Source: Sipunculus nudus (Eukaryota; Annelida; Sipuncula; Golfingiida; Sipunculidae). From it: a stretch of DNA of 64,000 bases. The notes beneath the pieces were generated by a model. It did no database searches. It saw only the letters and a list, made by a program, of their open reading frames with translations, and had not been told where the DNA came from. The DNA lies in NCBI GenBank assembly GCA_026874595.1, contig CM049313.1:77510659-77574658 (forward strand), read 5' to 3'. Of the stretch, positions 3,178 through 51,105 are shown in pieces (within the stretch, counting starts at the first letter, position 1; each line of letters starts with the position of its first letter). The position numbers and the translations under genes are program-made.

Positions 3178-5200
3178 GTACATACGAGCCCCTTAGCTCA
3201 GAGGATATGGGTAACAGAGACCTAATTTCAGGTTTCCAAGGAGATCTTTCATGGGCCTTCCTGTATGTCAAGTAAGAAGATTCCAGGTCCAGCGGTTATG
3301 ATTTGTGCCTGGTTAACTACTGCTTCTTGAAATGAAAAAAAAATGCGTAAAAATTGGAAAATATACAGGTGGCGCCACCAGTCTGCAGGTACTGATGTAA
3401 CACTCCGTGATCAATATGCATGCAAATAATCATGGTAAACAATGCATTAGTTATTTAGCTACTGCAGCTTTTGTATCAAATTTTTAATTGTTCTGGGGGG
3501 GGGGGGGGGGGTACTAAAGAGCATAATAGCTCGGAGGATATGGGCAACAGGGACCTAATTTTAGGTTTCCAAGGAGATTTTCAGGGACCACATAGGATGT
3601 CAAGTAAGATGATTCTAGGTCCAATTGTTACGATTTGTGCCCTGTTAACGGATGACCTCCATATTTGAAGGTCTCAAAACTAGAGAAAAAAATGCTTCAA
3701 CATTTGAACCAAGGCCTACAGGCCTAATGCGATTCTGTGAAAGTTTAGGAGTATAAATGGAGGTTTATTTTTATATTTAATATTGATCCTCTTATGTCCT
3801 GCATATCTTCCTTAGTCATTATGATTTCAGCAAAATGGACGGTAAGTTTCGGACTTGGACATTTAAAAACTAGGATATATCAGTCAAGATTTTCGGATGT
3901 TCTATTTGGAAGGATTATTGGGACAGATGAACGGACAATTTGACAGCATGGTTTCAAAGAAGAACATTTTTTAATGTTTTTTAACTTCTTCCCTGTAAAA
4001 TCTAAGAAAATGCAGTTAGCCAAAAAATAAGCAAAATCCGATAGAGTTTTTTAGATGACTAATTTTTTGCATATAAGTTCGTGATGCTAACTCTTGCCGT
4101 TTTCAAGATAGTATGGGTTAACGTACAGACGACGGACGACGCCAACCATCGCGTAAGCTCACAGGTTCCCTAAAAATTGGTGATGCTAGCTCCTGCCGTT
4201 TTTGAGATAGATATGGTTAACGTACAGACGACGCAACGACGGACGACGCCGCACCATCGCATAAGCATACAGGTTCGCTAAAAATACAGGTGGTGCTACC
4301 AATCTGCATGAACTGATGAAAGACTCTTATATGCATGCAAAGAATCATGGTGATCAACACATTAATTGTTCAGTCACTGGAGCTTTTGTATTCAATTTTT
4401 AATTTTTCTGGGGTGTACTTCTGAGCCCATAAATCAGCTGATATAGGTAACAGAAACGTAATTTCAGGTTTCAAAGGAGATTTTTTCAAGGACTTCCCTC
4501 GATGTCAGGTAAGAAGTTACGCTAAATGGTTACGATTTGTGTCCTGCTAACGAAAAACCGCATTCTTGAAGGTCTCAAAATACAGAAAAAAATGCATGAA
4601 ACCCGAAAATATACAGATAGCGCCACCAGTCTGCATGGATCGATGAAAGACTCAATGATCAATATGCATGCAGAGAATCATGGTGATCAACACATTAATT
4701 GTTCATATAGTGGAGCTTTTGTATAACATTTTTAATTATTCTGGTGGGTTCTTCTGTGCCCCAAAGCGAGGAGCATATCGATAACAAACTTAATCATAGA
4801 GTCCAAGGAGATTTTTCATGGACCTCCATGGACGTAAAGTAAGAAGATTCGAGGTCAAGTGATTATGATTTGTGCCCTTTTAACGGATGGACAGACAGAC
4901 GGACAGACTACGGACCAAGAATAATCGCTACAGCTCATCTGACGGAAAGTCATCCGAGCTATAGCAATCACTTTATGTCCAAAGTAGCAAAAAGTGGTCT
5001 GAAACCCATAAAAAAGATTGCTGTGGCTGAAGGGAAGGGGGGGGGGGGGGGGGGGGGGGGTGGTGGTGGTCCGGATCCTCTGATCTCCTCCCCTGATGTC
5101 ACAGAGAACGTACACTATTTGCGCCCAAAACAAATGACACAAAGGCATTTTCTTTCACCCTTTTGCTAATTAATTAAGTGTCCAATAGAGGTGTTCTTTT
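3178..5200. repeat. Dispersed repeat family, several adjacent copies
   Basis: Copies of one unit recur with block order: GGTGGCGCCACC-type palindrome, 'tctgcaggaactgatgaaac', 'gatcaatatgcatgcaa', 'attattctgggg', 'ccccatagctcag', 'gggtaacagagacctaattt', 'tttccaaggagatttt' and 'ttgtgccctgttaacgga'. Examples start near 3366, 4287 and 4617. A second block type around 4081-4270 carries 'gctcctgccgttttt', 'gacgacgccgcaccatcgc' and 'aggttcgctaaaaat'. Long poly-G runs sit at about 3490-3509 and 5037-5060. Short open frames here follow the repeats and are not called as genes. Confidence 0.6.
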
Positions 5201-12454: not shown

Positions 12455-13063
12455 TGGAAAGATTTTATCCTCCTCTCAATAGAGTGAACCATCTTTGTAA
12501 GGTTCTGGCATCCTCTGAGGAAAGGTTTTTACCTCCTCTCTGTGGTTAACTCACCTGTAGTAAAGGTTTTAGTCTCCTCTCTGTGGAAAACTCACCCCTA
12601 GGAAAGGTCTGTACATCCTCTCTGTGGAAAACTCACCCCTAGGAAAGGCTTAGTCTCCTGTCAATAGGGTTACCATTCTGTGAGGGGTTTTAGACTCCTC
12701 TGAGTAATGTAGTAGATATCACCTATAGGAAAGGTTTTTACCTCCTCTTGGGGGTATATACTCAACCGAAGGGAAGGCTTGGCCTCCTACCAGTAGTAAA
12801 CTCACCTCTAGGAGAGGCTTTGGCCTCCTGTCAACAGGGTATACCATTCTTTGAGAGGTTTTGGCCTCCTCTCAGTGGTGTAGTAGTAACCACCTCTAGG
12901 AAAGGCTCGAGCCTCCTGTCAACAGGGTATACCATTCTGTGTGAGGTTTTAGCTTCCTCTGAGTAATGTAGTTGTAATAACCTCTCGGAATGTTTTTACC
13001 TCCTCTCGGTTGCATATACTCAATTGTAGGAAAGCTTCGGCATTCTAACAGTAGTATACTCAC
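12455..13063 (-). repeat. Intronic tandem array derived from the adjacent RING-CH exon end
   Basis: Directly downstream of the RING-CH exon lie about 15 degenerate units of roughly 40-45 bp. On the minus strand most resemble 'gagaggaggccaaagcct' followed by 'ttcctagaggtgagt', which is the last codons of the exon (E-R-R-P-K-P-F-L-E) plus its own splice donor. Some units read instead like R-R-P-K-P-L-K-E-W, closer to the MARCHF consensus at the exon junction. The plus-strand marks are repeated 'cctcct' followed by 'ctgtggtgtactc' or 'caacagggtatacc' sequences, for example at 12570, 12613, 12782, 12823, 12863, 12910 and 12999. Several units keep a good GTGAGT donor. Confidence 0.8.
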
Positions 13064-13274
13064 CTCTAGGAAAGGCTTCGGCCTCCTCTCTGTGGTGTAC
13101 TCATAGCCACATATCTCACACTTGTTGGAGCTGGAGGAGCCAAGCCATTTCTCCACACAGGTCTGGTGGACCGAGCTCATAGAACCAGCACACTGGCAGG
13201 GACTAATCAAGGATTCCACACTCTCACCTTCATGACAGATCCGACACACACTGCTGTCTGTACTCCCTGTACCA
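13064..13274 (-). CDS. MARCHF2/3-like E3 ubiquitin ligase, RING-CH exon
   Basis: This exon encodes residues 62-131. The acceptor is 'ctttgtag', and the first base completes a Ser codon begun by the upstream exon (AG|T). The donor is GAG followed by gtgagta. It carries a complete C4HC3 RING-CH (RINGv) domain: C71-x2-C74, C87-x-C89, H97-x2-C100 and C113-x2-C116, with W104 in the E2-binding position. All eight zinc ligands are present, so ligase activity is expected. Family members ubiquitinate membrane cargo such as receptors. MARCHF2 and MARCHF3 are equally good relatives by eye, so no symbol is assigned. Confidence 0.92.
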
Positions 13275-15119
13275 CTACAAAGTATATACCAGGGTATATA
13301 AAATCAACAAGCTTGTAAGTCAGACGGCCTTTTAGTTAGTTTAAGGACTTTCATCAACTTAGAAATTCTCCAGCCTTTTATACTAGTGTGGTTTATCTGT
13401 ATACTTCTGGTTTGTGTCATAATAACTTAGTGCCAGATTACCCTAGCAGGATAATCAAATACTAAATATAAGAAAGCAAGAAAAATGCTACTGGTACATG
13501 TGCACTTTTTGGACTACATCTAAGATACAGAAGCCTCTCATGACCAATTATTTGTAAAACTATATATATTTCAACTATGTGAAAGTAATATGTGTTTAGA
13601 ATTCCCACTGGGAATATATGAAAACCTGTAAAATATAAAATAAGGAAGAAAGTGGAGATGAGCTGTTGTATAAAAATATAAATATTTATTTATTAACTGA
13701 AAAAAAATACTGTAAAAAAATAGAAATGTACATCTTCAAATGAGCATTAATTCAATCTAAGGAGTATTTATTGTACTCTGTAATATATAACTGAAACCAT
13801 TTAATCATCCAATATGGGAAAAAAGGTTATGGACCTAAAACTTATACTAAAGGATATATTTGATGAACAAACAAGTGACCCATGGGTCATGACGCTCAGC
13901 TGAATGACATGTTGACAATATGTCCTTGCACAGGCAACTAATTAAGATAATGTAGGTGGCATCATTGTTCATGCATCTTAGCTTATGTTCATCAAGACCC
14001 ATAAGCACAACAAATTTGATGACAATCCAACCAGCCTTTCATGAGGAATCTGGCAATTTTTGTGTATTTTGCTTTATTTCTGGGGTGCTCAATCATACCC
14101 CAAAACTCTGAGAATATAGTTCACAGTGACCTAATTTCAGGTTTCTGGGAAGAACTTTTGAGGAACTCTCAGGATGTCGAGTATGAAGTTTCTGGGCTAA
14201 ATGGTTATGATTTGTGCCCTACTTTGGTATCAAATTTTCAATTATTCTGAGGGGCAGTTATAAGCCCCATAGCTCAGAAAATATGGGTAACAGAGACCTA
14301 ATTTCAGGTTTCCAAGGAGACTTTTCATGGACCTTCCTGGATTTAAAGTAAGAAGATTCCAGGTCCAATGGTTATGATTTGTGCCCTACTTTGGTAGCAA
14401 ATTTTTAATTATGCTGGCGGTGTTTATAAGCCCCATAGCTCAGAGAATATGGGTAACAGAGACCTAATTTCAAGTTTCCAAGGATATTTTTCACAGCCTG
14501 GATGTTAAGTTAAAAGATTCTAGGACCAATGGTTACATAAGTGCCCTATTAACAGACGACTGCATCTGTGAAGGTCTCAAAAATAAAGATAAAATGCGTT
14601 AAAATTTGAAAAAGACAAGATGGTGCCTTGAGTCTGCAGGAACTGATGAAACACTCCAAGGTGCATTTATGCATGCAAAGAATCATGCTGATCAATGCAC
14701 TAGTTGTTCAGATACTAGAGCTTTTGTATCAAAATTTTTGTTATTCTGGGGGGTACTTTCTGAGCTCTGACAATATGGATAACAGAGACCTAACTAATTC
14801 AAGGTTTCCGAGGAGACTTTTTATGGACCTCTCTGGATATAAAGTTAAAAGATTTCAGGTCCAGTGGTTACTATTTGTGCCCTGTTAATAGATGACCACA
14901 TCTTTAAAGGTCTCAAAAACAGAGAAAAAATATTGTAAGAAATTGAAAAAAATACAGGTGGCGCCACCCATCTGCAGAAACTGATGAAACACTCCATGAT
15001 CAATATCAATGCAAAGAATCACGGTGATCAATGCATTAGTTGTTCAGATACTTGAGCTTTTGTATCAAATTTTTCATTATTCTGGGTAGTACTTCAGAGC
15101 CCCATAGCTCGAAGAATAT
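13275..15119. other. MARCHF intron, 3' part: unique sequence then dispersed repeats
   Basis: 13275-13900 is AT-rich with no gene recognised. From about 13900 to 15119 there are four to five copies of the dispersed family (for example 'gggtaacagagacctaattt' near 14288 and 14454, and a perfect GGTGGCGCCACC at 14957-14968). The last copy stops at 15119 in 'ccccatagctcgaagaatat', where the 10.46-kb transposon begins. The copy resumes at 25577 with 'aaatatgggtaacagagacc'. Confidence 0.6.
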
Positions 15120-15134
15120 CAGGGTTGGTTTCAG

Positions 15135-15961
15135 AATTTTAAGTTTAGGGGGGGAATCCCCTCCCTAATTTTTTTTTTTTTTGGGGGGGGGGGGGGGGGA
15201 ACTAAATTTTTGAGGGGGACCTGATTAGTAATGATAATACTGATGGTAACCCCATGACTGCGCTCAAGAATACATTCAAACATACAGATGGCATGACGCA
15301 CACAGCAGAAAATACAGAGACAAATAAAAAGGCATTATCAGTTAATTTACTGTTTACTGGTAAATTCAGTATTTCCTGTTTATTCCATGTAAAGTGTAAC
15401 TGTTAATGGCCTTTGGGGCATTTGTAGGGCATACTTTCATGTATATCAGCTTTACAAAGAAAATCTAAACTATATCAATATATGTAAATAATAAGATTGT
15501 AATAACTGGAAAGCCTCTTGGCAGAGCAGAGTTGATTTTTAACTGTCCTACTGATTTTGGTCAAAAGTAGAAATTGTATAGTTGTTGATAGTAATAACAA
15601 ATTAACTTTCACATGTATAGAATTTCAACACCATGGTACTTTGCATGCTCAGGAGAGGTGCAAGTATCATAGTGTTAGTATACATGTGAAAGTTAGCCAA
15701 TGGCCACTTTGCAATCCTGTAAAAAATGCTAAAATCATACAAAATGTATATATCACTAATAAAAAATCTTAGATCTGTAACATGGTCCTGTCATATAGTT
15801 ATTACTTGAATAATCTACCGTTCTTTTGATATTTCCAATGAATTATTGCACTACTGAAGTCATATTTCTCATCTTCCGGCCCTTCTAGAGCGATCATTAT
15901 TATGTATTCAAGGTCTGTTCTTGAATTCTGTTACGATTGATTGTTTTTATATGATTCTGCA
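15135..15961. other. Left subterminal region of the large transposon
   Basis: It begins with a poly-T/poly-G tract (15166-15199) and continues as AT-rich sequence with small direct and inverted bits ('acatgtatag'/'atacatgtgaaagt' around 15610 and 15680). No coding region is recognised apart from the LINE that starts near 15962. It may hold subterminal transposase-binding repeats, but none is clear by eye. Confidence 0.35.
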
Positions 15962-17789
15962 TGGAGAATCCCCTTTCACAATCAGACCAATTTCAAGTAA
16001 ATCTAAGGGACCAGATGATATACATCCCTTCATTCTAAAGACCTGTTATAAAGAATTATCATACCCAATTAAAAAAATCGCCGAACTTTCCTTTAACACA
16101 GGAAAACTACCTACCCTATGGAAAAAGGCAAATGTCACACCTATCTTTAAAAGTGGTGATCCTAAACAACCAGTAAACTACAGACCCATATCACTAACAA
16201 GCTGTATATGTAAAATAATAGAGAAAATTATATTTGCCAGAATGCTTAACTTCTTTAAAGAAAACAGAATTATATCAGCATACCAATCAGGATTTTTACC
16301 TAGAGACTCTGCAGTGTATCAATTAACAGACTTGTACAATACTATCACCTATAATTTAGACAATGGAAAAGAAGGAATAGGAATCTTTCTAGATATAAGT
16401 AAGGCTTTTGATAAAGTCTGGACAGATGGCCTTCTCAGTAAGCTACTCTCAGCAGGAATAACAGGTAAACTGCACAGATGGTTATACAACTATTTAACAA
16501 ATAGACAACAACGAGTAATTATAGAAAATGCTCCCTCGGAATGGAAATTCCTACAGCAGGGGTACCACAAGGATCGATCCTAGGACCCCTACTCTTCTTA
16601 GTCTTTATCGACGACATAGGAGAAAAACTCACAAGTAATATTCGTCTCTTTGCGGACGATACAATGTTATACCTAGCCATAGAAAATCCCATCCGAGCAG
16701 CCCAGATACTAAATGCTGACCTTGAAAAGATTTACCAGTGGTCAAGGAAGTGGCTAGTCACTTTTAATGCAGGAAAAACTGAATCGGTACTCTTTTCAAG
16801 GAAAAAAGCACCTGTAAACCTCCCTGACTTATACCTAAATAAAACAAAAATAACTAGACTCAAAATGCACAAACATTTAGGAATAATCCTTAGCCATAAT
16901 TGCAAATGGCAAGAACACATAAACTACATTGCAGCTAAAGCAATGAACAAACTTCTAATCTTAAGCAAGTTAAAATATCTCCTAGATAGAACAACCTTAC
17001 AAAATATATATTTCTCATATATCAGACCCCTATTAGAATATGGAAACATCTTATGGAGCAACTGTACCAAGGAACAAGACCAGACACTTGAAAAAATACA
17101 ATTGATAGCTGCAAGAATTGTAACGGGAGGGGTAAAAGGAACATCACATGAACTCATATCTTGAATCAGGATGGGAAACTCTCAAAAAGAGAAGAGAAAA
17201 CAAACAAATCCTCCTTGTACATAAACTGATTAACAATGAAAGTCCGCAGTATCTACGCATTCTTCTTCCACCTCCACATAGTAACATATACGAAACCAGA
17301 TTTGTAATACACAACCTTACTCCAATACAAGCAAGAACTGATTTATATTTCAATTCTTTTCTCCCAAAATCAATCAGATTATGGAACCAAATGGATCTTG
17401 ATAAGAAAGCTTGCTTGACAAGTGGCTCATTAAACTACCAATTGAAAAAATCAGCTCTAAGAACTAAAACACCTACGTACTACAACTCGGGAACCAGAAA
17501 ATCACAAATAATCCATGCACGCATGAGAATGAAATGTAGTGATCTAAATTATCATATGTACACAAGACATATTAGCCACACCAAAAAATGTCAATGTGGC
17601 CACCCATCAGAAGATCCCAACCACTACCTACTGCAATGCCACCTCTATAACTCCACTAGAAAAACATACTTACCTAGGGATACCCCATTAAAAGTTCTAC
17701 TTTTTGGTGACCCAAAAATAGATGACAAATCAAACAAGGAAATATTCGAATCGGTAGCAAACTTTATTGAAAACTCAAACAGATTCTAA
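15962..17789 (+). pseudogene. LINE reverse transcriptase ORF2 remnant with two frameshifts
   Basis: Three overlapping frames together give one RT protein. Frame 1 (to about 16545) has SKGPDDIHP, NYRPISLTS and the motif-A block GIFLDISKAFDKVW. Frame 2 (about 16541-17160) has GVPQGSILGPLLFL and the catalytic FADDT (16649-16663), then the HLGIIL motif. Frame 3 (about 17148-17789) has the C-terminal region with a CxC...H...C cluster (CQCGHPSEDPNHYLLQC). The breaks lie near 16545 and 17155, each consistent with a single-base indel. The reading frame is otherwise open, so decay is recent. It cannot make a full protein as it stands. Confidence 0.85.
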
Positions 17790-18135
17790 CATAAAATAAT
17801 TATACAATTTTGACAAACTCATCCTACACCCACCAAAACTCTTTCTCTCCTCTCAACTGGCACCTTACACTTTCCAAATCACAACTAAAAACATAGTCAT
17901 TATGCTATCCACATCTTCCATGATACCTCAGTCACCAATATGTTAACATCACCCCCCCCCCCCCCCCCGCCATGCATCAGAAAATTACCACTTTAGAATT
18001 CAGGAGCGAGCTTCATAAGCTTTAAGTAGCTTGCGCTCAATCTATTAATACAAGTTTATATTTATATATGTGCTTAGGTAGAATACCACGTGAATGTACT
18101 TACTATGTATTGTGTCAATAAATCATTCAAACAAA
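15962..18135 (+). mobile_element. 5'-truncated non-LTR retrotransposon (Jockey/CR1-like LINE)
   Basis: The element covers the reverse-transcriptase domain to its 3' end. No endonuclease domain is present, so it is 5'-truncated within the RT fingers. The coding part runs to 17789. The 3' tail carries a polyadenylation signal AATAAA at 18118-18123, followed by 'tcattcaaacaaacc', typical of a short A-rich LINE tail. A poly-C run sits at 17951-17968. It is inserted within the larger hAT-like transposon, next to its transposase remnant. Assignment to the Jockey/CR1 group is by motif appearance only. Confidence 0.8.
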
Positions 18136-18139
18136 CCAA

Positions 18140-19200
18140 TTTCTGCACGTAACAAAAGAATTGGGGATGGTCTGTGAGTGATGAGCTTTGATTAGTTTCC
18201 ACAAAACAGATGTTTTGTTTGTGGAATACCTCTCTCAGGATGACCTCTTTCAACAGAGTCCACTCCCTTAAACATTCAGTTTTCAGTACCTTAGGACTGC
18301 TAGAAATGCCCGACTGGTGCACTGTGAAGTTAGTGCACCAATTTCTTCCTCCCATTTTCTGACAATACACTCAAAGACCTTAAACCTAAGACTTCAAAGG
18401 CTGTGGCCACTGTTACAGTTTAACTTGGAAATCTCCTGTCAAGTTCGGCTTTCAAAGAATCAATAAAGTCCTTCTTTATGTCACTGATTTGTTTTTTGCT
18501 TCTTTGTAATTTTTCAATTTCTCTGCAAAAAAACTACATACATTTTCAAATATAACTTCAGATGTGCATGTAACATCACTAAGAGTCAAGTTAACAATGA
18601 AGTGGGTTTCTGGATCAAAATTTTGACCCATAAAATGTGTGTACATAACAAATTTTTTGTGACAGTAATGTCTGTACTCTCATCCATCAGCAGGGTGAAA
18701 AAGTAACTGTTCCTCATCCATTAAACAAGTCCTCTTGCATCTGCCATGGAACGCTGGAATTCCTCTGCTGTTTTTCTAGACTGGTAGGTTGCATGGTCTT
18801 AAACATTCAATACAGAAGTGTCACATCCCTGAAGTTTCATCAAGTTCATCAAAGATGTGTACTTGTTTGTAGTTATTTGTTCTTTAGCTAACCAGTAGGC
18901 ATTTCTCATAGCCTTACATACAGAAACATGTTTCTTCTCCATTACAGTGTTTGCCACAGCAAACTCATTCTTCAACAATAAAGCTTTCACAGCAGACTGA
19001 TGTTCACTACTGGCAGCATGTCAGCTCAGTGTTGAAGTCCTAAAGTTTGTACATCCATCAAAAGAAGTAAATGGGTTGATTTGTTTGCTTTTAAGACATA
19101 TATGGCACTATATTCCATCCTTAGCGCTTGTTCTCAGCCATGTATATTGCTGTAGCCAATAACTGAAATTTATGGTGCTTCTGCATTTTAGCTGGTTTAG
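18140..19200 (-). pseudogene. hAT-type transposase remnant (KIAA1586/ZNF862-like)
   Basis: On the minus strand conserved blocks appear in order, in shifting frames. First, near 19170-19110, is a WLQQYTWLRTSAKDG block. A TTF/BED-like zinc-finger region follows (CHICLKSK, NPFTSFDGCTNFRTSTL, then H..SSEH) at about 19100-18990. Next come RNAYWLAKEQITTNKYTSL (about 18900) and FFTLLMDESTDITVT (about 18690), the start of the RNaseH-like core. A C-terminal LREWTLLKEVI block lies near 18270. In-frame stops and frameshifts separate the blocks and the catalytic core is shortened, so it is dead. The family resemblance is from recognition of the pattern; a profile search would settle it. Confidence 0.75.
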
Positions 19201-20790
19201 TACCACTAGTGCTGTGTGTTTTTTCACCAACAATGGTAGGATTGGTGGCATTAGTGGCACCAGTATTGACAGGAGTGCTGGAACCAGTCGTGGCACAGGT
19301 TGTGGCAGTAATGGTGGCATCAGTAGTGGCAGGAGTTGTGGAACCAGTCGTGGCACCAGCAGTGACAGAAGCACTGGAACCAGTCGTGGCACAGGTTGTG
19401 GCAGTAATGGTGGCATCAGTAGTGGCAGGAGTTGTGGAACCAGTCGTGGCACCAGCAGTGACAGAAGCGCTGGAACCAGTTTTGGCACAGGTTGTGGCAG
19501 TAATGGTGGCATCAGTAGTGGCAGGAGTTGTGGAACCAGTCGTGGCACCAGCAGTGACAGAAGCGCTTGAACCAGTTGTGGCACAGGTTGTGGCAGTAAT
19601 GGTGGCATCAGTAGTGGCAGGAGTTGTGGAACCAGTCGTGGCACCAGCAGTGACAGAAGCGCTGGAACCAGTTTTGGCACAGGTTGTGGCAGTAATGGTG
19701 GCATCAGTAGTGGCATCAGTAGTGGCAGGAGTTGTGGAACCAGTCGTGGCACCAGCAGTGACTGAAGCGCTGGAACCAGTCGTGGCACAGGTTGTGGCAG
19801 TAATGGTGGCATCAGTAGTGGCAGGAGTTGTGGAACCAGTCGTGGCACCAGCAGTGACAGAAGCGCTGGAACCAGTCGTGGCACAGGTTGTGGCAGTAAA
19901 GGTGGCATCAGTAGTTGCAGGAGTTGTGGAACCAGTCGTGGCACCAGTAGTGACAGAAGCGCTGGAACCAGTTTTGGCACAGGTTGTGGCAGTAATGGTG
20001 GCATCAGTAGTGGCAGGAGTTGTGGAACCAGTCGTGGCACCAGCAGTGACAGAAGCGCTGGAACCAGTCGTGGCACAGGTTGTGGCAGTAATGGTGGCAT
20101 CAGTAGTGGCAGGAGTTGTGGAACCAGTCGTGGCACCAGCAGTGACAGAAGCGCTGGAACCAGTTTTGGCACAGGTTGTGGCAGTAATGGTGGCATCAGT
20201 AGTGGCAGGAGTTGTGGAACCAGTCGTGGCACCAGCAGTGACAGAAGCACTGGAACCAGTCGTGGCACAGGTTGTGGCAGTAATGGTGGCATCAGTAGTG
20301 GCAGGAGTTGTGGAACCAGTCGTGGCACCAGCAGTGACAGAAGCGCTGGAACCAGTCGTGGCACAGGTTGTGGCAGTAATGGTGGCATCAGTAGTGGCAG
20401 GAGTTGTGGAACCAGTCGTGGCACCAGCAGTGACAGAAGCGCTAGAACCAGTCGTGGCACAGGTTGTGGCAGTAATGGTGGCATCAGTGGTGGCAGGAGT
20501 TGTGGAACCAGTCGTGGCACCAGCAGTGACAGAAGCACTGGAACCAGTCGTGGCACAGGTTGTGGCAGTAATGGTGGCATCAGTAGTGGCAGGAGTTGTG
20601 GAACCAGTCGTGGCACCAGTAGTGACAGAAGCGCTGGAACCAGTCGTGGCACAGGTTGTGGCAGATACGATGGCACCATCAGTGGCAGGAGTTGTGGTAC
20701 TGTTGGTGGTATGAGTGGTCACGGTGGCAGAAGACTCAGTGGTAGCAGCTTCAGAGATACTTTGACCGGTTACATCATCATCACCTGAAA
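19200..20790 (-). CDS. Thr/Ser-rich tandem-repeat exon (mucin-like), probable N-terminal part of the transposase gene
   Basis: This is a single minus-strand open frame with no stop across 14 units of 96 bp (32 residues each). The unit begins TTGSSASVTAGATTG and ends in ATTCA, with one Cys per unit. A plausible acceptor (ttgatttcag) precedes GDDDVTGQSISEA at 20790. After the array the frame reads HSTSGTKPAKMQKHHKFQ and then slips into the transposase zinc-finger block near 19150. It is rich in potential O-glycosylation sites, but no signal peptide is seen in the exon. The other two minus-strand frames and one plus-strand frame are also open, because the unit lacks stops, so coding use is inferred. 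It may be a minisatellite only. Confidence 0.45.
19305..20660. repeat. 96-bp tandem repeat array, 14 copies
   Basis: The period was measured from successive 'ggaacc' marks (19376 and 19472) and from 'cagtaatggtggcatcag' recurring every 96 bp from 19306 to 20566. One unit near 19700 carries an extra 12 bp ('gtggcatcagta' doubled), which keeps the reading frame. Units are almost identical. A CG/TT variant in 'ccagtcgtggcacag' versus 'ccagttttggcacag' (Thr versus Lys in the minus frame) marks units near 19478, 19670, 19971 and 20162, hinting at amplification in blocks larger than one unit. Confidence 0.95.
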
Positions 20791-20890
20791 TCAACAGACT
20801 CTTTTTATATTTGTCATTTTCAATAGAATGTTTTCTGGTAATTATTTTAATACAGAGTTTTATAATTATGTGAATAAAATAAACTTTCAC

Positions 20891-22505
20891 AAAATTGTGT
20901 TACCTAAATAAAAGACTAAATTCTTAATGACTATAATGTTTAATATCAATATATGCTTTACTTTTGAGCTGTAAATAATCATTTAATTAGTAAATAGAAC
21001 TATTCTGAAAAACAAAATGGGCATTTGTCTCTGGATCTAATCACTGAAAAACCTAATAAGAAAATAAATGAGCAAACAATGAACTAACGATTTCACATTT
21101 TTTTACATAAAAATCAATTATCAAAATATATAAAACTTGGAGAGGATAATATTACATCTCTAAGGGAAAATGGTCTTTCACAGGATTTCTTCAGAACATT
21201 AGTAAATCATTATAAGATATTCAAAATAATACCATATTCATCATTCAATGTCCATGGGCATGAATAAGAAGTTTTCACTTTGACTTATCATTAACAATTT
21301 GAAAAACGCAAAAAAAAATATAAATATATGAATTTGATAACAAGCTGAATAATGACATCATATGGAAAATGGTTTCACATGAAAAATAATCAGGCGAACC
21401 AATACATTTATTTTTTTTATATTAAAAATAAATTAAAATAAAACTATATTCAATAACTTTGTCTGTGACTCCTTTGAGCAAAACATATTAAATTACAAAA
21501 AAATACTTTTCCAATTTCACTGACACCTTACATCCTTTGGTCTGAATCATGCGCAAGTATACAATTAAAACAGTTCATAAAAAAGTACTTTCAATAGACC
21601 ATTTCAGCATCTCGGGACTCGCAATGCATGCTAGTCAGGGTCAAAGGTCACCATTACCAAAACACGTTCCTTGACCAGACATGTGCAAGGCAGAAATGGC
21701 GGAACGTCACGTTCCAAGCCTTTCTATATATCTATAAATATTTTCAGTGGACGCCTCTCATAGAAAATGGCACCCTTTATAAGTGTTACACATTGCTCCT
21801 AGGCAGGTTAGAGCTTTTATGCTGGCTTTTTAAACAAAATGTAACAAATACGGGCACTTGTGCAGTCGCTCACTCCATGTGACTCACAGAATCACACTGG
21901 TGAAATATTCAAGTGGACACGTGCTGGTGCTTCACATTTAACTTATTTATATGTAGAAATGTCCTTGGCAACACTTTGATATAAAGGTTAGTAACCATTT
22001 ATTAATCATGAGTATTTAGATTAGATCAACTTTTTTTCTCTCGAAATGCATCTTTATAACTATCTCAAATTTAATTTTCCTGATTCCTGTGTTATTAACA
22101 GTTTATTACAATACTGTTATGTTGAACGCCAGTGTTTCAAGACATAATTCCCTTTAGTCCAGATAATCCTTTAATATTTTTATATTTCCTAATAATAATC
22201 CACACTAATCACTGAGGAAATAATTAATACTGATAACTCTTTGACCCTGTCATGGACAAAACGGAAATGTTTCACTTAATGTTTCACGCAAATGTTCACA
22301 GTTCAGCATGCAAAACTGCTGGACAAGATTATTGTTATTTCAAAATTACAAAAAAGTCTTTATCTCTTGGGTAATGGGATGGTAAATATAAATTATAATA
22401 TAGCTTTTGGGGAACATATCAAGACATTAAAAATATAGTATAATGCAAAACTTGTAAACATAACTGTTTACCCTGTTATTTGTCACTGTTATGGTTAATG
22501 CGTAA
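20891..22505. other. Transposon interior, no gene recognised
   Basis: The sequence is AT-rich. The only structured item is at 21590-21700, where the line from 'gaccatttcagcat' to 'ggtcaccattaccaaaac' recurs in inverted orientation at about 24895-24970. Short open frames lack codon or domain support. Confidence 0.4.
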
Positions 22506-23160
22506 TACATTATTAAGATAAGATAAGATAAGATAACATTTATTAGCCTTCAGTTCCAGGAATTTGTCGTTGACTTGCAATTCATTACATAAAAATAAAT
22601 AAGTAAATAGATAGATAAATACATAAAAAAATACACAAAATTACATAAAAATCACACATAACATATTGACTATGCATGTAAAATTAAGCATGTAAAAATG
22701 ATAGAACAGATAATTCTGCAGGTAAAACACATAATTCAAAACATTAAATATCTAAAAGGGTTGTGAGTTAATAAGTTTAATACTGTATGGTACGAGAGAT
22801 TGTTTAAAACAAGTTGTTCTGCAGAATATTGTATCTAGGCGTTTACCTGAAGGTAAAAAACAGAAATCTGTAGGGGATGTGTTGGGTCACATGACCTTTG
22901 ATATGAAGGCCATTGTTTTGGTTTCACAGATTTCCTGGTGTGTGGCAAAAGAAGTACCAGTTATTCTACAACTTCTCTTCCTGGTTTTATTTAACTGTTC
23001 TTTAACTTATCAGATATATTTGTATTAGCCTTCTGTTGAAGATGTTTATGGCTTTCATGATCGTGGATAAATATTTAAGTGTCAAAGAACTTGAGAAAAT
23101 ATGATTATTAGAGAGTTTTGTATGGTAGTTTTTCATGGATTTGCCAATGTCATCTCTTAA
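22506..23160 (-). mobile_element. LINE 3'-end remnant with (TTATC)n tail
   Basis: Read on the minus strand, the segment ends in AATAAATG followed by TTATCTTATCTTATCTTA. This is a pentamer-repeat tail (plus-strand AAGAT repeats at 22506-22535), as in several CR1/L2-like LINEs. Just inside, near 22870-22760, a minus-strand frame reads LPSGKRLDTIFCRTTCFKQS then LVPYSIKLIN. That resembles the C-terminal end of a non-LTR ORF2. The 5' part is missing and the frame is broken. The upstream limit is approximate. Confidence 0.5.
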
Positions 23161-24217
23161 CAGGTTCAGAAATATAATATTTCTATATATTTTATGCTAC
23201 TGGCGTATATATATATATATATTACTGGATTTCACAAATAAAGCAGACCATTTTCAGTAAATAAACATTTTACTTAAACATGACATGTCATTTGAAGGAT
23301 TTAAACATGACTAAAATGCAGTGGGATAAAAGCAAATATATATACTATATGGAAGTCCTTTTATAGCATGCACCTTTTTCAGCTTACATTTTCCTTTTTT
23401 TTATAGTTTTTATGGAGTTTTAACACTAAAAATTTTTTTGAGAATCCTCAAGATACAACATTATACAAGTGTATAATACGTATGCTAAAAATAATATACT
23501 TTTACTATAAAATCAATAAATTTTACTTCATACAAGTGCTTTGGACCAGCTGCTGTTAGACAAGGGCACAATACACTGAATATCAAAGGGGCAGACCATA
23601 TATGCATGTGTGTACCTTTCATGTACCAAATACCTTTCATCAATCAATCAACAATTCATGCTTATTTGGTGTTTTATGCAGGGAGATTTTGGAGTGAAAT
23701 GCCTCCACTTCATTTTTTTTTGGAAAAATGTAATATATTAGGTCTGTATGAAGCATGTAAGGGCAGTTATTTAGAGGATGTTGCAATGAAGCTTTTTTCT
23801 CACCCCCCCCCCCCCCTTCCCCATTGGTATCAAGGGTCAATATTTCATCAAATGTCTTGCATAATCAGACAGACAGGCACAGTGGCCTCCTGTTTCTGGC
23901 TTTTCAACAACTGTACATCTGTTTTGTAATATTTAATGTTTTTAGGTGAGATACTTTTAATGTTGCAAGTGACAGATATTTGTTTTTGTTAAATCTCAAC
24001 TATTACCATTTAACTTAGTTGTTAATGCTGAGTGTGATAGTTTTATTAATCATAAGGAGGAGCAAAATGGCAGTGTCCCCACATTTAAGAAATAAAATAA
24101 AACATAAATAAAAGATGGGTAATACATATTGATAACTTATATCTATTGATAACTAATATATTATAGCGAGTAAAAAATTGTCAATAAGTACATTTAACAA
24201 GAATATAAGGTAACTGC

Positions 24218-24265
<48 letters not shown>

Positions 24266-24522
24266 TATTTATATATATATATATATGCATATATGTATGT
24301 TATATGTTTCTTTTCTATGTTACGAAAGAGAGGCAGGCTCAAAGTATTACTTATACTAATAGTAATGCTGTTATACTACTAAATTGATATTAACTATTAA
24401 ACTAAACGTAGCCACACAACTTATTTGGACAGAAATCCCTGCTGTTAAAATTGTCATTAATTCACACATTTGTAACAATGTACCGCTATCAGTAAAATTT
24501 TCGCCAGTAATTCGTTATGATT

Positions 24523-24568
<46 letters not shown>

Positions 24569-25561
24569 TATTGTATAGTCTATACCATTTTAAACAAAAA
24601 TTGTTTATGTCCGCGCCGATCTGCTGGCAACTTGCACCCACATGCGCGTGACACGGCCTTGGTGCCTTCGTTCACTGATCAGAACTCGCACAACACACGT
24701 GTTGGTTCCTGTGTTTTTCACAGACTTGCTGGCTCTGTCTTCACAAACCATGTGTACCATTGATACAATGTTTCACGACTTTGTTTGGGACGAGGCATGT
24801 TAAACCCCGAGAAACAAGTAACACAGTGTATCTGATGCGTCTGACAAACGAAGCGGCAGAAGTTGCCAGGACCGTATGTAGTTTGTTTTGGTAATGGTGA
24901 CCTTTCACCTTGGGCTCAAGGTCGGTCATCGCACATGCGCGCCTGTAATGCTGAAATGGTCTATCCACGGACCTTGACCTTTATTAATCATAGGACATAC
25001 TGACTAAACCATAATCAGGGATGTATTCTCACATTTACATACCTTTGATTTATTTGAATTTGAATCCCAACAGAGTATTTTGGCCTATGTCCAATGACAA
25101 ATTCAGCCTGCGTTTGTTCCCTGCGTCTTGCCACCCTTTTCTTTTGTTGCCAAGTTGCTTTCGTCATGATAAAGTTTCACACTCGGGTCTCCTTGGCCGA
25201 ATTTGTATTAGTCTCTCCAACAGATGCCAGGTGCCGCCGACGTTGCTTGAGCTGACTCGGAACACTTGATTTTGGCCGAGGAGTTCCGAGTGGCTGGCGC
25301 TGTGAATCCACTATGTACAAGGACTCACAAATATAAGTGAGGATTTCCGAGTGCCTGAATCCTTTTCATTCACCAGATGGCGCTTGTGATTGATACCAAA
25401 ATAAAGTAAAAAGGGTCGTTATGCAGGGTTTATGACGGGAAATCTACCGTGGGAACATATTCTTTACAAATATGGTGGGGGGGGGGGGGGGATTAGGGGC
25501 GGAATAATTTTATCAAGGGGGGATTTTTTGCTTTTATAGGTGAATCCCGCAATCCCGCGCC
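23161..25561. other. Transposon interior: TA microsatellites and a CpG-richer patch
   Basis: TA microsatellites occur at about 23206-23222, 24223-24290 and 24526-24566, and a poly-C run at 23804-23816. From about 24605 to 25000 the base composition becomes CpG-richer. This part includes the inverted copy of the 21.6-kb segment and a minus-strand ATG (MPRPKQSRETLYQW, open for 26 codons, near 24803) of unknown meaning. It could be the promoter or first-exon region of the minus-strand transposase gene, but no splice junction to the 20790 acceptor was found. A poly-G run lies near 25476-25490. Confidence 0.3.
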
Positions 25562-25576
25562 CTGAAACCAACCCTG

Positions 25577-25780
25577 AAATATGGGTAACAGAGACCTAAT
25601 TCCAGGTTTCCAAGGAGATTTTTCATGAACCACTAAGAATGTAAAGTTAGAAGATTCCAGGTCCAGTGGTTACAATTTGTGCCCTGTTAACTGACAGATG
25701 GCCGGATGAAACAACAGACAAAGAGTGATCGCTATAGCTCAGATGACTTACAGTCAGCTGAGCTAAAAAATGTGTTCATG
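25577..25780. repeat. Right half of the dispersed repeat unit split by the transposon
   Basis: The sequence resumes with 'aaatatgggtaacagagacc', 'aggtttccaaggagattttt' and 'ttgtgccctgttaac', and ends 'cagtcagctgagctaaaaaa'. This completes the unit that stops at 15119. The same end occurs at 38221-38240. No gene. Confidence 0.75.
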
Positions 25781-33428: not shown

Positions 33429-34946
33429 ATGACAAACTACCGACAGAGAATGGGTAATTTTAGATCTTATATTCATCAATATTGCATTTGGTGCGTTCTC
33501 TTGGCGAATTCCATGATTTGCTTGGCACAGGTTAGGGTAAAGGTCACAGTTAATACATCGCGGACCACATTTGTGACAAACAAACGCTTCCTGAGTCTTG
33601 GAATGGATTCCAACCTGGTGAGGAAACACTGGTTGACATTTAATTTCAAGTCGCACCGGGTAGCTACACTTGCTAAAGCTTTGGCACCGGCATATCTTCG
33701 CTTCTCGGGCACAGATGCAGATCGACTAGTCTTCCAATCATCGGAGGCAGAGAGACATACCAGGAATGGTCTGTTTCCAACCTCCAGGTTCAACATGACC
33801 ACAGCTGACTGGGACAAGCTGTATATGATCTCCGAAAGTGTTGGTTGGCGACTTGTGTTTGGATTTAACGCCCAGTTAAGGAATGGCTCCGGATGGAACC
33901 CTGGCAACGCGGAGTCTTTGCTGGAATATTCAGTCAAAAAGGGTTATACAAATAACTTAGACTTCGAACTTGGTAACGAACCGAGCGCTTACACCAAAAA
34001 GCCGAAATTCATTCCGGTGCCCGCTGAACAACTGGGAAAAGATTTCCATGCTCTACGTAATATACTCAGCGGACCCAAATACGGAAAATATTTTGGAAAA
34101 TCACTTCTGGTTGGACCTGATATTAATATTTTAAATTACAAATACCTTGAGAAATATTTAACCACGACAAGTGACGTAATCAATGCAGTGACTTTCCATC
34201 ATTATTACGGACCATTATTCACGGTAAAAGATTTCACAAGCATAGAGAAGTTGGATTCTTACAAAACGCGACTAGAGCCAATCCAACATGTTGTTAGGAA
34301 CAGTCCAAACCCAAATCTCTCGATGTGGAACGGGGAGTCCAGCTCAACCGGACACCCACCAGGGTCATATATAAGTATGAGTTACGTGGCCGGCTTTATG
34401 TTTCTGGATAAACTTGGATTGTCTGCACAGCTAGGAGTTGATGTCGTCATATGTAACACATTCTACGGTTTCTGGATCGCTCTTATAGACCAACAGCTCA
34501 TGCCTACCCCAAGGTACTGGATAGCGTTGCTGTTTAAACGACTCGTTGGGCAAAAGGTGCTACAGGTTGACAGTAATTTTGATTACAGAATGCCTAATTT
34601 GACAAAAGGTGGAGTGCGTATTTATGCTCACTGTGTATCGTCTTCGGCAGGATATCCAGAAGGTGCTGTTGTTCTTTATGGCATGAACTTACTACATGAT
34701 AACGTTACTTTGGATTTGGGCCGGGATCTTCATATGCATCAATTTCTTCTGACCTCAGATAAATGGGGCGGCATAACCTCAAACTTCCTGTTGCTGAATG
34801 GCAAGGTCGTCGTGATGGAACACGATCTGAAACTGCCGAATCTACCCCCACGTGACCTTGGCAAAAGAAACAAATTGAATCTTCCACCAAAATCACTTTT
34901 CTTTGTGGTACTACTTGATTATGACGTAAACGTGTGCCTTCAGTGA
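33429..34946 (+). CDS. Heparanase-like endo-beta-glucuronidase (GH79), intronless
   Basis: The 505-aa frame covers the usual heparanase length (human HPSE is about 543 aa). GH79 heparanases cleave heparan sulfate chains in the extracellular matrix or lysosome by a retaining mechanism. A hydrophobic N-terminal segment (about residues 18-33, ending CLAQ) looks like a signal peptide. The TIM-barrel core has LRFSGTDAD (90-98), and the proton donor Glu184 in LGNEPSAY. FHHYYG follows at 257-261, and then the nucleophile Glu303 in MWNGESSS. Both catalytic Glu residues are therefore present. The C-terminal part (about 395-505) fits the beta-sandwich domain. The activating-linker region found in vertebrate proheparanase is not evident. 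The gene has no introns across its length. ATG33429 is the first in frame; Met8 is an alternative. Confidence 0.88.
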   Translation: MTNYRQRMGNFRSYIHQYCIWCVLLANSMICLAQVRVKVTVNTSRTTFVTNKRFLSLGMDSNLVRKHWLTFNFKSHRVATLAKALAPAYLRFSGTDADRLVFQSSEAERHTRNGLFPTSRFNMTTADWDKLYMISESVGWRLVFGFNAQLRNGSGWNPGNAESLLEYSVKKGYTNNLDFELGNEPSAYTKKPKFIPVPAEQLGKDFHALRNILSGPKYGKYFGKSLLVGPDINILNYKYLEKYLTTTSDVINAVTFHHYYGPLFTVKDFTSIEKLDSYKTRLEPIQHVVRNSPNPNLSMWNGESSSTGHPPGSYISMSYVAGFMFLDKLGLSAQLGVDVVICNTFYGFWIALIDQQLMPTPRYWIALLFKRLVGQKVLQVDSNFDYRMPNLTKGGVRIYAHCVSSSAGYPEGAVVLYGMNLLHDNVTLDLGRDLHMHQFLLTSDKWGGITSNFLLLNGKVVVMEHDLKLPNLPPRDLGKRNKLNLPPKSLFFVVLLDYDVNVCLQ

Positions 34947-37756: not shown

Positions 37757-38590
37757 GGGTGATAACTATATTGCATCCACTTGTGATCAATACACACACC
37801 AGGTTTTGGGACATGAGATGTAATTACAGCTGAGAAACTGACATGATTGTTGTCATTTTATAGTAAAAAAATAAAAAAATATTCGTTAAAATAACAAAAA
37901 ATACAGGTGACGCCACCACTTTTCGGGACTGACGAAACTAGTCATGGTCAATATTCAAGGCAAGATTCATGACGATCCAAGCATTAATTAACAAGATATT
38001 GGAGGTTTTGTATTATATTTTTTAATATTCTGGGGGGTACTTTCAAACCCCATAGCTCGGAGGATATAGGTCGCGGTTACCTAATTTCAGGTTTCCAAGG
38101 AGATTTTTATTGACCTCCCTGGATATTCACCTAGAAGTTTCTAGGTCCAGCAGTTACGATTTGTGCCCTGCTAACGGACGGCCGGACGGACAAAGCGCCA
38201 TTCCTATACCTCAGTTGACTTACAGTCAGCTGAGCTAAAAAATAAAATTTTTTCTGAAAAGCTAAAGTGCAAACAAATGTTTCAGTTTAATCATATGTTT
38301 GGTACACAAGGGTTGATATCACCCTTACCCTAAAAAAAAACTTAATACACTTTTCCATGAACAAATAAAAATGGGCAAGTTGAACCACGCAATGAAATGT
38401 TGAACCAACGCAATGAAAACCCTGAAAATTTAACTCGCAGTATTCTGCGCAAAAGCACATACGACATATAATTATCTCGCGGCCACGAGATACTATCGCG
38501 TGGGAACGAGATAATGATCCCGCGGCCACGAGATACTATCGCGTGGGAGCGAGATAAAAAAAATCTGGGTGTCCTATACGAGCCACCGTA

Positions 38591-50221: not shown

Positions 50222-51105
50222 GGTGTCAGTGAGTGCGACCACATGTACAGGTTTTATGTTAATAAGGAAAGTAAACGTGTCTGTGAGTGTGACCACAAGT
50301 ACAGGTACTGATGTTGATACGGAAGGTACAGGTGTCTGCACATAAGAGTGAGACCACAAGTACAGGTACTGATGTTTATACGGAAGGTATACAGGTGTCT
50401 GCACATGTGAGTGTGACCACAAGTACAGGTACTGATGTTTATACGGAAGGTATACAGCTGTCTGCACATGTGAGTGTGACCACAAGTACAGGTACTGATG
50501 TTGATACGGAAGGTGTATAGGTGTTTGCACATGTGAGTGTGACCACAAGTACAAGTGCTGATGTTGATAGGAAGGTACAAGTGTCTGTGGATGTGACCAA
50601 AAGCACAGATTTATGTTGTTACGGAAGGTATACAGGTGTTTGTGAGTGTGACCACAAGTACAGGTATTCATGTTGTTACGGAAGGTACAGGTGTCTGTGA
50701 GCGTGACCACAAGTACAGGTACTGATGTTGATACGGCAAGTACAGGTGTCTGTGAGTGTGACCACAAGTACAGGTACTGATGTTGATACGGAAGGTACAG
50801 GTGTCTGTGAGTGTAACCACAAGTACAGGTACTGATGTTGATACGGAAGGTACAGGTGTCTGTGAGTGTGACCACAAGTATAGGTATTGATATTGTTACG
50901 GAAGGTATACAGGTGTTCGTGAGTGTGACCACAAGTACAGGTATTCATGTTGTTACGGATGGCACAGGTGTCTGTGATTACGACCATATATGCAGGCGTT
51001 GATGTTCGATACGGAAGGTACAGGTGTCTGTGAGTTAAACCACAAGTACAGGTATTAATGTTGATACGGAAGGTATACAGGTGTTTGTGAGTGGTAATTG
51101 TCAAA
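50222..51105. repeat. Minisatellite, 55-bp unit, about 15 copies
   Basis: The unit has 'acaggtgtctgtgagtgtga', 'ccacaagtacaggtactgat' and 'gttgatacggaaggt'. The spacing of 'acaggtgtct' is exactly 55 bp at 50742, 50797 and 50852. Left-hand units are longer (about 61-67 bp) owing to 'tatacagg' and 'tgcacatgtgag' variants. Long open frames on the minus strand arise because 55 is not a multiple of 3 and the unit lacks stops; they are not called as genes. Confidence 0.95.

What the first reader, a model, noticed from the sequence alone, without database searches (positions are those of the whole stretch)
15120..25576. 10.46-kb hAT-like transposon carrying a Thr/Ser tandem-repeat exon upstream of its transposase
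Seen: perfect 15-bp TIRs (CAGGGTTGGTTTCAG and its inverse). Flanks are two halves of one dispersed repeat, with a 5-6 bp duplicated AATAT/AAATAT. Inside, on one strand, are a 14 x 32-residue Thr/Ser repeat frame and then TTF/BED-like zinc finger and RNaseH-like blocks of a KIAA1586/ZNF862-type transposase. Known: hAT termini often start CAG and duplicate 5-8 bp. Inference: a hAT transposase gene with a mucin-like N-terminal array, which I do not recall as a described architecture.
Basis: partly seen in the sequence, partly recalled or inferred. Interest (0 to 1): 0.75.

Follow-up and report, generated by a model that had tools for sequence, protein, structure and literature searches.

The report
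Dead jumping gene with stretched linker
This is a broken copy of a known class of animal jumping gene (a hAT DNA transposon) whose enzyme carried a threonine/serine-rich repeated linker in front of its zinc finger: a new twist on a known kind of element, not a new kind of system.

Summary
The element at 15120-25576 is real: exact 15-bp inverted ends, a 6-bp target duplication (5 of 6 bases), and paralogous repeats that show the empty site. The same ends bound other copies in this genome; 3 of 8 pairs tested have perfect 6-bp duplications, as in the hAT6 group. The gene is a C17orf113/ZNF862-like hAT transposase. The 14 x 32-residue Thr/Ser array is real, but is not a separate exon: copies compared show one frame from array through a basic stretch into the zinc finger. 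All four array loci found belong to this element, with about 2.6, 3.5, 6.5 and 14 units; no host gene with the array was found. The window copy is dead: an inserted LINE, an inserted second element and a ~630-bp core deletion. Its 14 units differ by 1.5% from their consensus, other copies by 13-22%, so the expansion is young. Changes between copies look neutral, but changes among window units lean to synonymous (7 of 10), so whether the array grew before or after death is open. None of 23 relatives assessed has such an array. Verdict: new variant of a known kind. In passing: another copy holds a long satellite made from its own transposase core.

The parts
15114..15119 (.). left copy of the 6-bp target duplication
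   Evidence: 5 of 6 bases match the right copy
15120..15134 (+). left inverted end, 15 bp
   Evidence: exact match; 18 exact places in the genome, reversed control 0
15808..15986 (-). C-terminal transposase piece with CERGFS-type end
   Evidence: tblastn with P0001 and P0004
15995..18134 (+). inserted LINE with broken reverse transcriptase frames, between 9-bp duplications at 15986 and 18135
   Evidence: absent from L013; RVT_1; duplication positions
18160..18527 (-). transposase pieces C-terminal of the core deletion
   Evidence: tblastn
18521..18527 (.). junction of a ~630-bp core deletion relative to L013 6862-7494
   Evidence: blastn and junction sequence
18518..19158 (-). transposase: zinc finger (about 19000-19107) and first part of the RNase H-like core (DESTD)
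   Evidence: tblastn and translation
19298..20653 (-). array of 14 x 96 bp (32 residues, 53% Ser+Thr), one unit with 12 extra bases
20654..20784 (-). start of the array exon and degenerate edge units; acceptor AG just upstream at 20785-20786
   Evidence: AG kept in 4 of 4 array copies
21597..24961 (.). second inserted element with 14-bp inverted ends, flanked by TA
   Evidence: absent from L013; ends located
24964..25561 (-). 5' terminal region of the transposon, shared by most copies; first exon unresolved
   Evidence: 614-bp query including the right end: 30 matches in the genome, many short
25562..25576 (-). right inverted end, 15 bp
   Evidence: exact match
25577..25582 (.). right copy of the 6-bp target duplication
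   Evidence: empty site

Best explanation
A decayed copy of a cut-and-paste hAT DNA transposon with 6-bp target duplications, whose transposase is of the C17orf113/ZNF862-like type (zinc finger, DUF4371/RNase H-like core, hAT dimerisation end). Shown: in this family the N-terminal linker, just before a basic stretch and the zinc finger and in the same frame, consists of tandem 96-bp units, and the number of units differs between copies. Shown: the window copy is broken by a deletion and two insertions. Inferred: the ancestral transposase had a flexible Thr/Ser-rich spacer of a few diverged units; the unit number rose to 14 in the window's lineage by unequal exchange or slippage; whether this happened while the gene still coded or after it died is open. 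Inferred: short copies with the same ends were moved in trans.
For: Ends and perfect 6-bp duplications at 3 of 8 pairs, 5 of 6 bases at 2 more; empty site. Array only in four copies of this element. Array, basic stretch and zinc finger in one frame when copies are compared. hAT dimerisation domain above cut-off in L013; a query merged from copies matches P0001 at 48% over 98% and P0004 at 45% over 100% of the part queried. Units: 20 differences in 14 x 96 bp in the window, against 13-22% to other copies. Alternating T/K variant in pairs of units fits block duplication.
Against: 2 of 8 pairs show no duplication (1 of 6 bases) and one 4 of 6. Zinc finger (29.3 against 29.5 bits) and DUF4371 (21.4 against 32.1) fall below Pfam cut-offs in the L013 pieces. 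No intact copy and no transcript was seen. The first exon could not be joined in phase. Against growth in a dead copy: among window units 7 of 10 distinct changes are synonymous and at third positions, about 3 expected.
Confidence: 0.87

Rival explanations
1. The long array is a selected, working part of the transposase (for example a phosphorylated or condensing domain), and it grew to 14 units while the element was alive.
For: Among window units, 7 of 10 distinct changes are synonymous against 0.309 expected, and 13 of 20 changes counted by unit are at third positions (the 20 are not independent). The array is kept in all four copies that retain this region.
Against: Between copies the array changes as expected without selection: 52 of 173 synonymous against 0.309. 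Other copies do with about 2.6-6.5 units. None of 23 relatives assessed has an array.
Confidence: 0.25
2. The array is a piece of a host gene, such as a mucin, captured by the transposon.
For: The composition resembles mucin repeats; none of 23 relatives assessed has the array.
Against: 17 of 17 protein matches and 4 of 4 DNA matches in the genome lie in this element (only 68 and 4 candidates were scored). Diverged units in L036 and L045 look like stages of growth within the element.
Confidence: 0.04
3. Ends, array and transposase are unrelated sequences brought together by nested insertions.
For: Two nested insertions are present, and several copies with these ends are short without transposase match.
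Against: L013 and L036 repeat the order right end, array, zinc finger, core at other sites, without the two insertions in L013.
Confidence: 0.02

Closest known systems
hAT6 group of hAT transposons (Kapitonov and Jurka 2007, as cited in PMC12730594, passages seen)
   Same: hAT transposase and 6-bp target duplications
   Different: array in the N-terminal linker; no Repbase hAT6 sequence could be compared here
C17orf113/ZNF862-like hAT transposases of invertebrates (P0001, P0004 and others)
   Same: zinc finger, core and dimerisation end, alignable over the whole part queried
   Different: their N-terminal parts are 57-166 residues with 0.11-0.30 Ser+Thr and no array in the 23 assessed
Minisatellites and satellites born inside transposons (review PMC9659126, passages seen; Tetris in Drosophila virilis, PMC4079207, listing only)
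   Same: tandem arrays arising within a transposon copy
   Different: here one array lies inside the transposase frame, and a sibling copy holds a long satellite from the catalytic core

Membership tests
hAT superfamily | hAT C-terminal dimerisation domain (PF05699) | tested here: met
   29.6 bits against cut-off 21.4 on a piece of copy L013; the window keeps only a short piece of it
hAT superfamily | short inverted ends and target duplication of fixed length | tested here: met
   15-bp ends; 6-bp duplication perfect in 3 of 8 pairs, 5 of 6 in 2, 4 of 6 in 1, absent in 2
hAT superfamily | complete acidic catalytic triad (recalled, not from a call) | tested here: not met
   in the window copy the middle motif is in the deleted stretch; L013 keeps a GSDGAAIM stretch. 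This speaks against activity of the copy, not against its family
hAT6 group | 6-bp target duplication | tested here: met
   definition in PMC12730594
hAT6 group | transposase clusters with hAT6 transposases | not testable with these tools
   no Repbase hAT6 sequences at hand
C17orf113/ZNF862-like transposases | zf-C17orf113 zinc finger (PF25431) | tested here: inconclusive
   29.3 bits against 29.5 on a truncated L013 piece; relatives P0001 and P0004 score 51.6 and 60.5
C17orf113/ZNF862-like transposases | overall homology across the protein | tested here: met
   48% over 98% to P0001, 45% over 100% to P0004, with a query merged from several copies

The most novel reading that the evidence does not exclude
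This hAT family breeds tandem arrays from its own transposase gene: a coding Thr/Ser spacer that lengthened in steps of 32 residues while the gene was alive and may tune the enzyme, and, in a sibling copy, a ~96-kb satellite made from the catalytic core, caught with its parent element still around it.
Probability: 0.22. Interest if true: 0.55.

Novelty: new variant of a known kind. Interest (0 to 1): 0.35.

Why it matters
It documents a hAT transposase whose N-terminal linker grew by tandem duplication, with four copies at different stages, and a sibling copy in which the same gene seeded a long satellite still flanked by its parent element. That lets the birth of a coding minisatellite and of satellite DNA be compared within one transposon family. 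It does not change what is known about hAT transposition.

Tried and rejected
Rejected: host mucin exon captured; array as a separate exon; ends belonging to an unrelated element. The open frame of the array was not used as evidence of coding, because several frames stay open there. A first-exon model from the conserved 5' end did not join in phase and is left open. A protein search with words from the array part found nothing at E 0.001 among 7,989 scored candidates, although that part includes the zinc finger; I take this to mean that Thr-rich candidates crowded out the rest, so it says little. A scan of nine loci (L051-L059; L052 is a copy of this family, L057 and L059 overlap) found no 60-residue stretch above 50% Thr/Ser/Pro/Ala in open segments of 60 or more residues. 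Nine paper searches gave no listed title or start of abstract that describes such an array; 3 of them returned no paper, and 50, 65 and 66 listed 15 of 39, 10 of 25 and 10 of 11 papers. Only listings were seen, except passages of PMC12730594, PMC3257199 and PMC9659126. Not answered: a genome-wide search with the satellite unit and with the end of the second inserted element. The tblastn output was cut; one search repeated it for 11 of the sequences.

Full report
The element. The window lies in an unnamed 1.43-Gb genome in 153 contigs; the host was not identified, though it is an animal by its genes (inference). The inverted ends at 15120-15134 and 25562-25576 are exact. The same 15 bases occur at 18 exact places in the genome, with 0 for the reversed control; uniform chance would give about 2.7 (my arithmetic), so a few of the 18 may be chance. 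Of the 18 sites, 8 form four exact pairs, 4 more have a partner with one or two mismatches in the stretch fetched (L009, L015, L018, L017), and 6 have none there (L010, L013, L016, L019, L020, L021). Of the 8 pairs, L011, L012 and L014 show a perfect 6-bp target duplication, the window and L015 5 of 6 bases, L017 4 of 6, L018 and L009 1 of 6; in the three perfect pairs no other length from 4 to 9 matches in full. With one target copy removed, the window's flanks join into a site that 8 of 11 blastn matches in the window read across; the loci fetched by then gave 30 of 30, some of them overlapping loci.

What broke it. Compared with copy L013, the window carries a LINE at 15995-18134 between 9-bp duplications, with reverse transcriptase pieces in broken frames, and a second element at 21597-24961 with short inverted ends and TA on both sides. 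It lacks about 630 bp of transposase that L013 keeps. Without the two insertions the copy would be about 4.9 kb (my arithmetic). tblastn places zinc finger, DESTD stretch, some core pieces and the CERGFS end on the minus strand, with nothing for residues ~225-457 of P0001, where the second acidic motif lies. There are also stop codons in the remaining parts. This copy cannot make a working transposase (inference).

Family. In L013 pieces Pfam finds the hAT dimerisation domain above its cut-off, and the C17orf113-type zinc finger (29.3 of 29.5 bits) and DUF4371 (21.4 of 32.1) below theirs. Among full relatives, P0004 passes for zinc finger and dimerisation domain and narrowly misses for DUF4371; P0001 passes for the zinc finger and narrowly misses for the other two. 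A query merged from several copies matched P0001 at 48% over 98% and P0004 at 45% over 100% of the part queried. Named relatives come from bivalves, an abalone, a brachiopod and hemichordates, with weaker ones from ferns, an alga and a primate. PMC12730594 (passages) says that hAT families with 6-bp duplications are called hAT6, and PMC3257199 (passages) lists ZNF862 as hAT-derived.

The array. The window has 14 units of 32 residues at 19298-20653, one with 12 extra bases. Array DNA was found at four places in the genome: the window, C16:46785 (L036), C4:23743 (L013) and C7:30518 (L045); 17 of 17 matches to a protein query from the array and its edges lie in the same four. The zinc finger follows in the window, L013 and L036; in L045 the sequence departs after the basic stretch. 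A further copy, C7:46588, lacks the region N-terminal of the zinc finger by deletion. Each of the three copies has a short frame break at a different place. The window reads without break from the array into the basic stretch, and L036 reads from just before the basic stretch through the zinc finger in one frame, apart from stop codons. So array and zinc finger belonged to one frame of one exon. The AG before it is kept in 4 of 4 copies.

How it grew. Aligned to the unit consensus, the array spans 15.8 units in the window with its degenerate edges (14 core units), 6.5 in L036, 3.5 in L013 and 2.6 in L045; mean identity between units is 0.92, 0.83, 0.84 and 0.67. The 14 core units hold 20 differences from their consensus, 1.5%; L036, L013 and L045 match that consensus at 87, 86 and 78%. 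The expansion to 14 is thus younger than the split of the copies. Between copies, array changes are synonymous in 13 of 45 (L013), 23 of 77 (L036) and 16 of 51 (L045), 52 of 173 in all against 0.309 expected. In the zinc-finger stretch it is 8 of 35 (L013), 14 of 51 (L036) and 6 of 17 (L038), 28 of 103 in all against 0.202, a slight excess (P 0.09). Among the window's own units, however, 9 of 20 changes are synonymous and 13 of 20 are at third positions; counted once each, 7 of 10 distinct changes are synonymous and at third positions. The numbers are small, but they point to growth while the frame still mattered, against the simple view of a minisatellite in a dead copy. I leave the timing open.

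Comparison. Of 85 relatives held, 23 had a recognisable zinc finger with at least 20 residues before it; their N-terminal parts are 57-166 residues long, 0.11-0.30 Ser+Thr, with no repeated word above 7 residues. The other 62 were not assessed. The window's unit is 0.53 Ser+Thr. P0080 has a Ser-rich repeated stretch elsewhere in the protein, so low-complexity growth is not unique to this element. Copies with the same ends but no blastn match to the transposase part measure 837, 1,092, 2,317 and 3,316 bp.

A sibling of interest. On C7 the element's left end (L016) is followed by 172-bp tandem units at 97%. The same unit fills the sampled middle (L060) and the far end (L038), after which parts of the same element resume. 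The unit comes from the transposase core: 78 bp match window 18534-18611 at 96%, and 188 bases of the doubled unit align to L013 7376-7577 at 84%. If continuous it is 95.7 kb, about 556 units; 18.2 kb was read. Whether it occurs elsewhere could not be searched.

Verdict. A real, dead hAT element, a new variant of a known kind. The array is a genuine feature of this transposase family; its 14-unit length belongs to the window's lineage and its use is unproven.

Noticed in passing
L016 1241-9820, L060 1-1598, L038 1-8037 (genome C7:46492421-46588136): 172-bp satellite at 97%, derived from the transposase core of a copy of this hAT element that still flanks it on both sides; 18.2 of about 95.7 kb read.
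   Followed up: partly
window 21597-24961: Inserted 3.4-kb element with 14-bp inverted ends GACCATTTCAGCAT and TA on both sides; no long frame with a known domain was looked for.
   Followed up: partly
window 3178-4875, 14222-15094, 25583-25700, 37974-38166; also L015: A dispersed, partly tandem repeat, the target of the insertion, recurs in the window and inside another element copy.
   Followed up: partly
window 33429-34946: 505-residue open frame with a glycosyl hydrolase family 79 N-terminal domain (heparanase-like) without an intron.
   Followed up: no
window 12896-13303: RING-variant domain on the minus strand, of the MARCH ligase kind (name recalled).
   Followed up: no
window 50222-51093: Minisatellite of about 15 copies of a 55-bp unit.
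   Followed up: no
P0080: A relative with a long Ser/Lys/Thr repeated stretch in the middle of the transposase.
   Followed up: no
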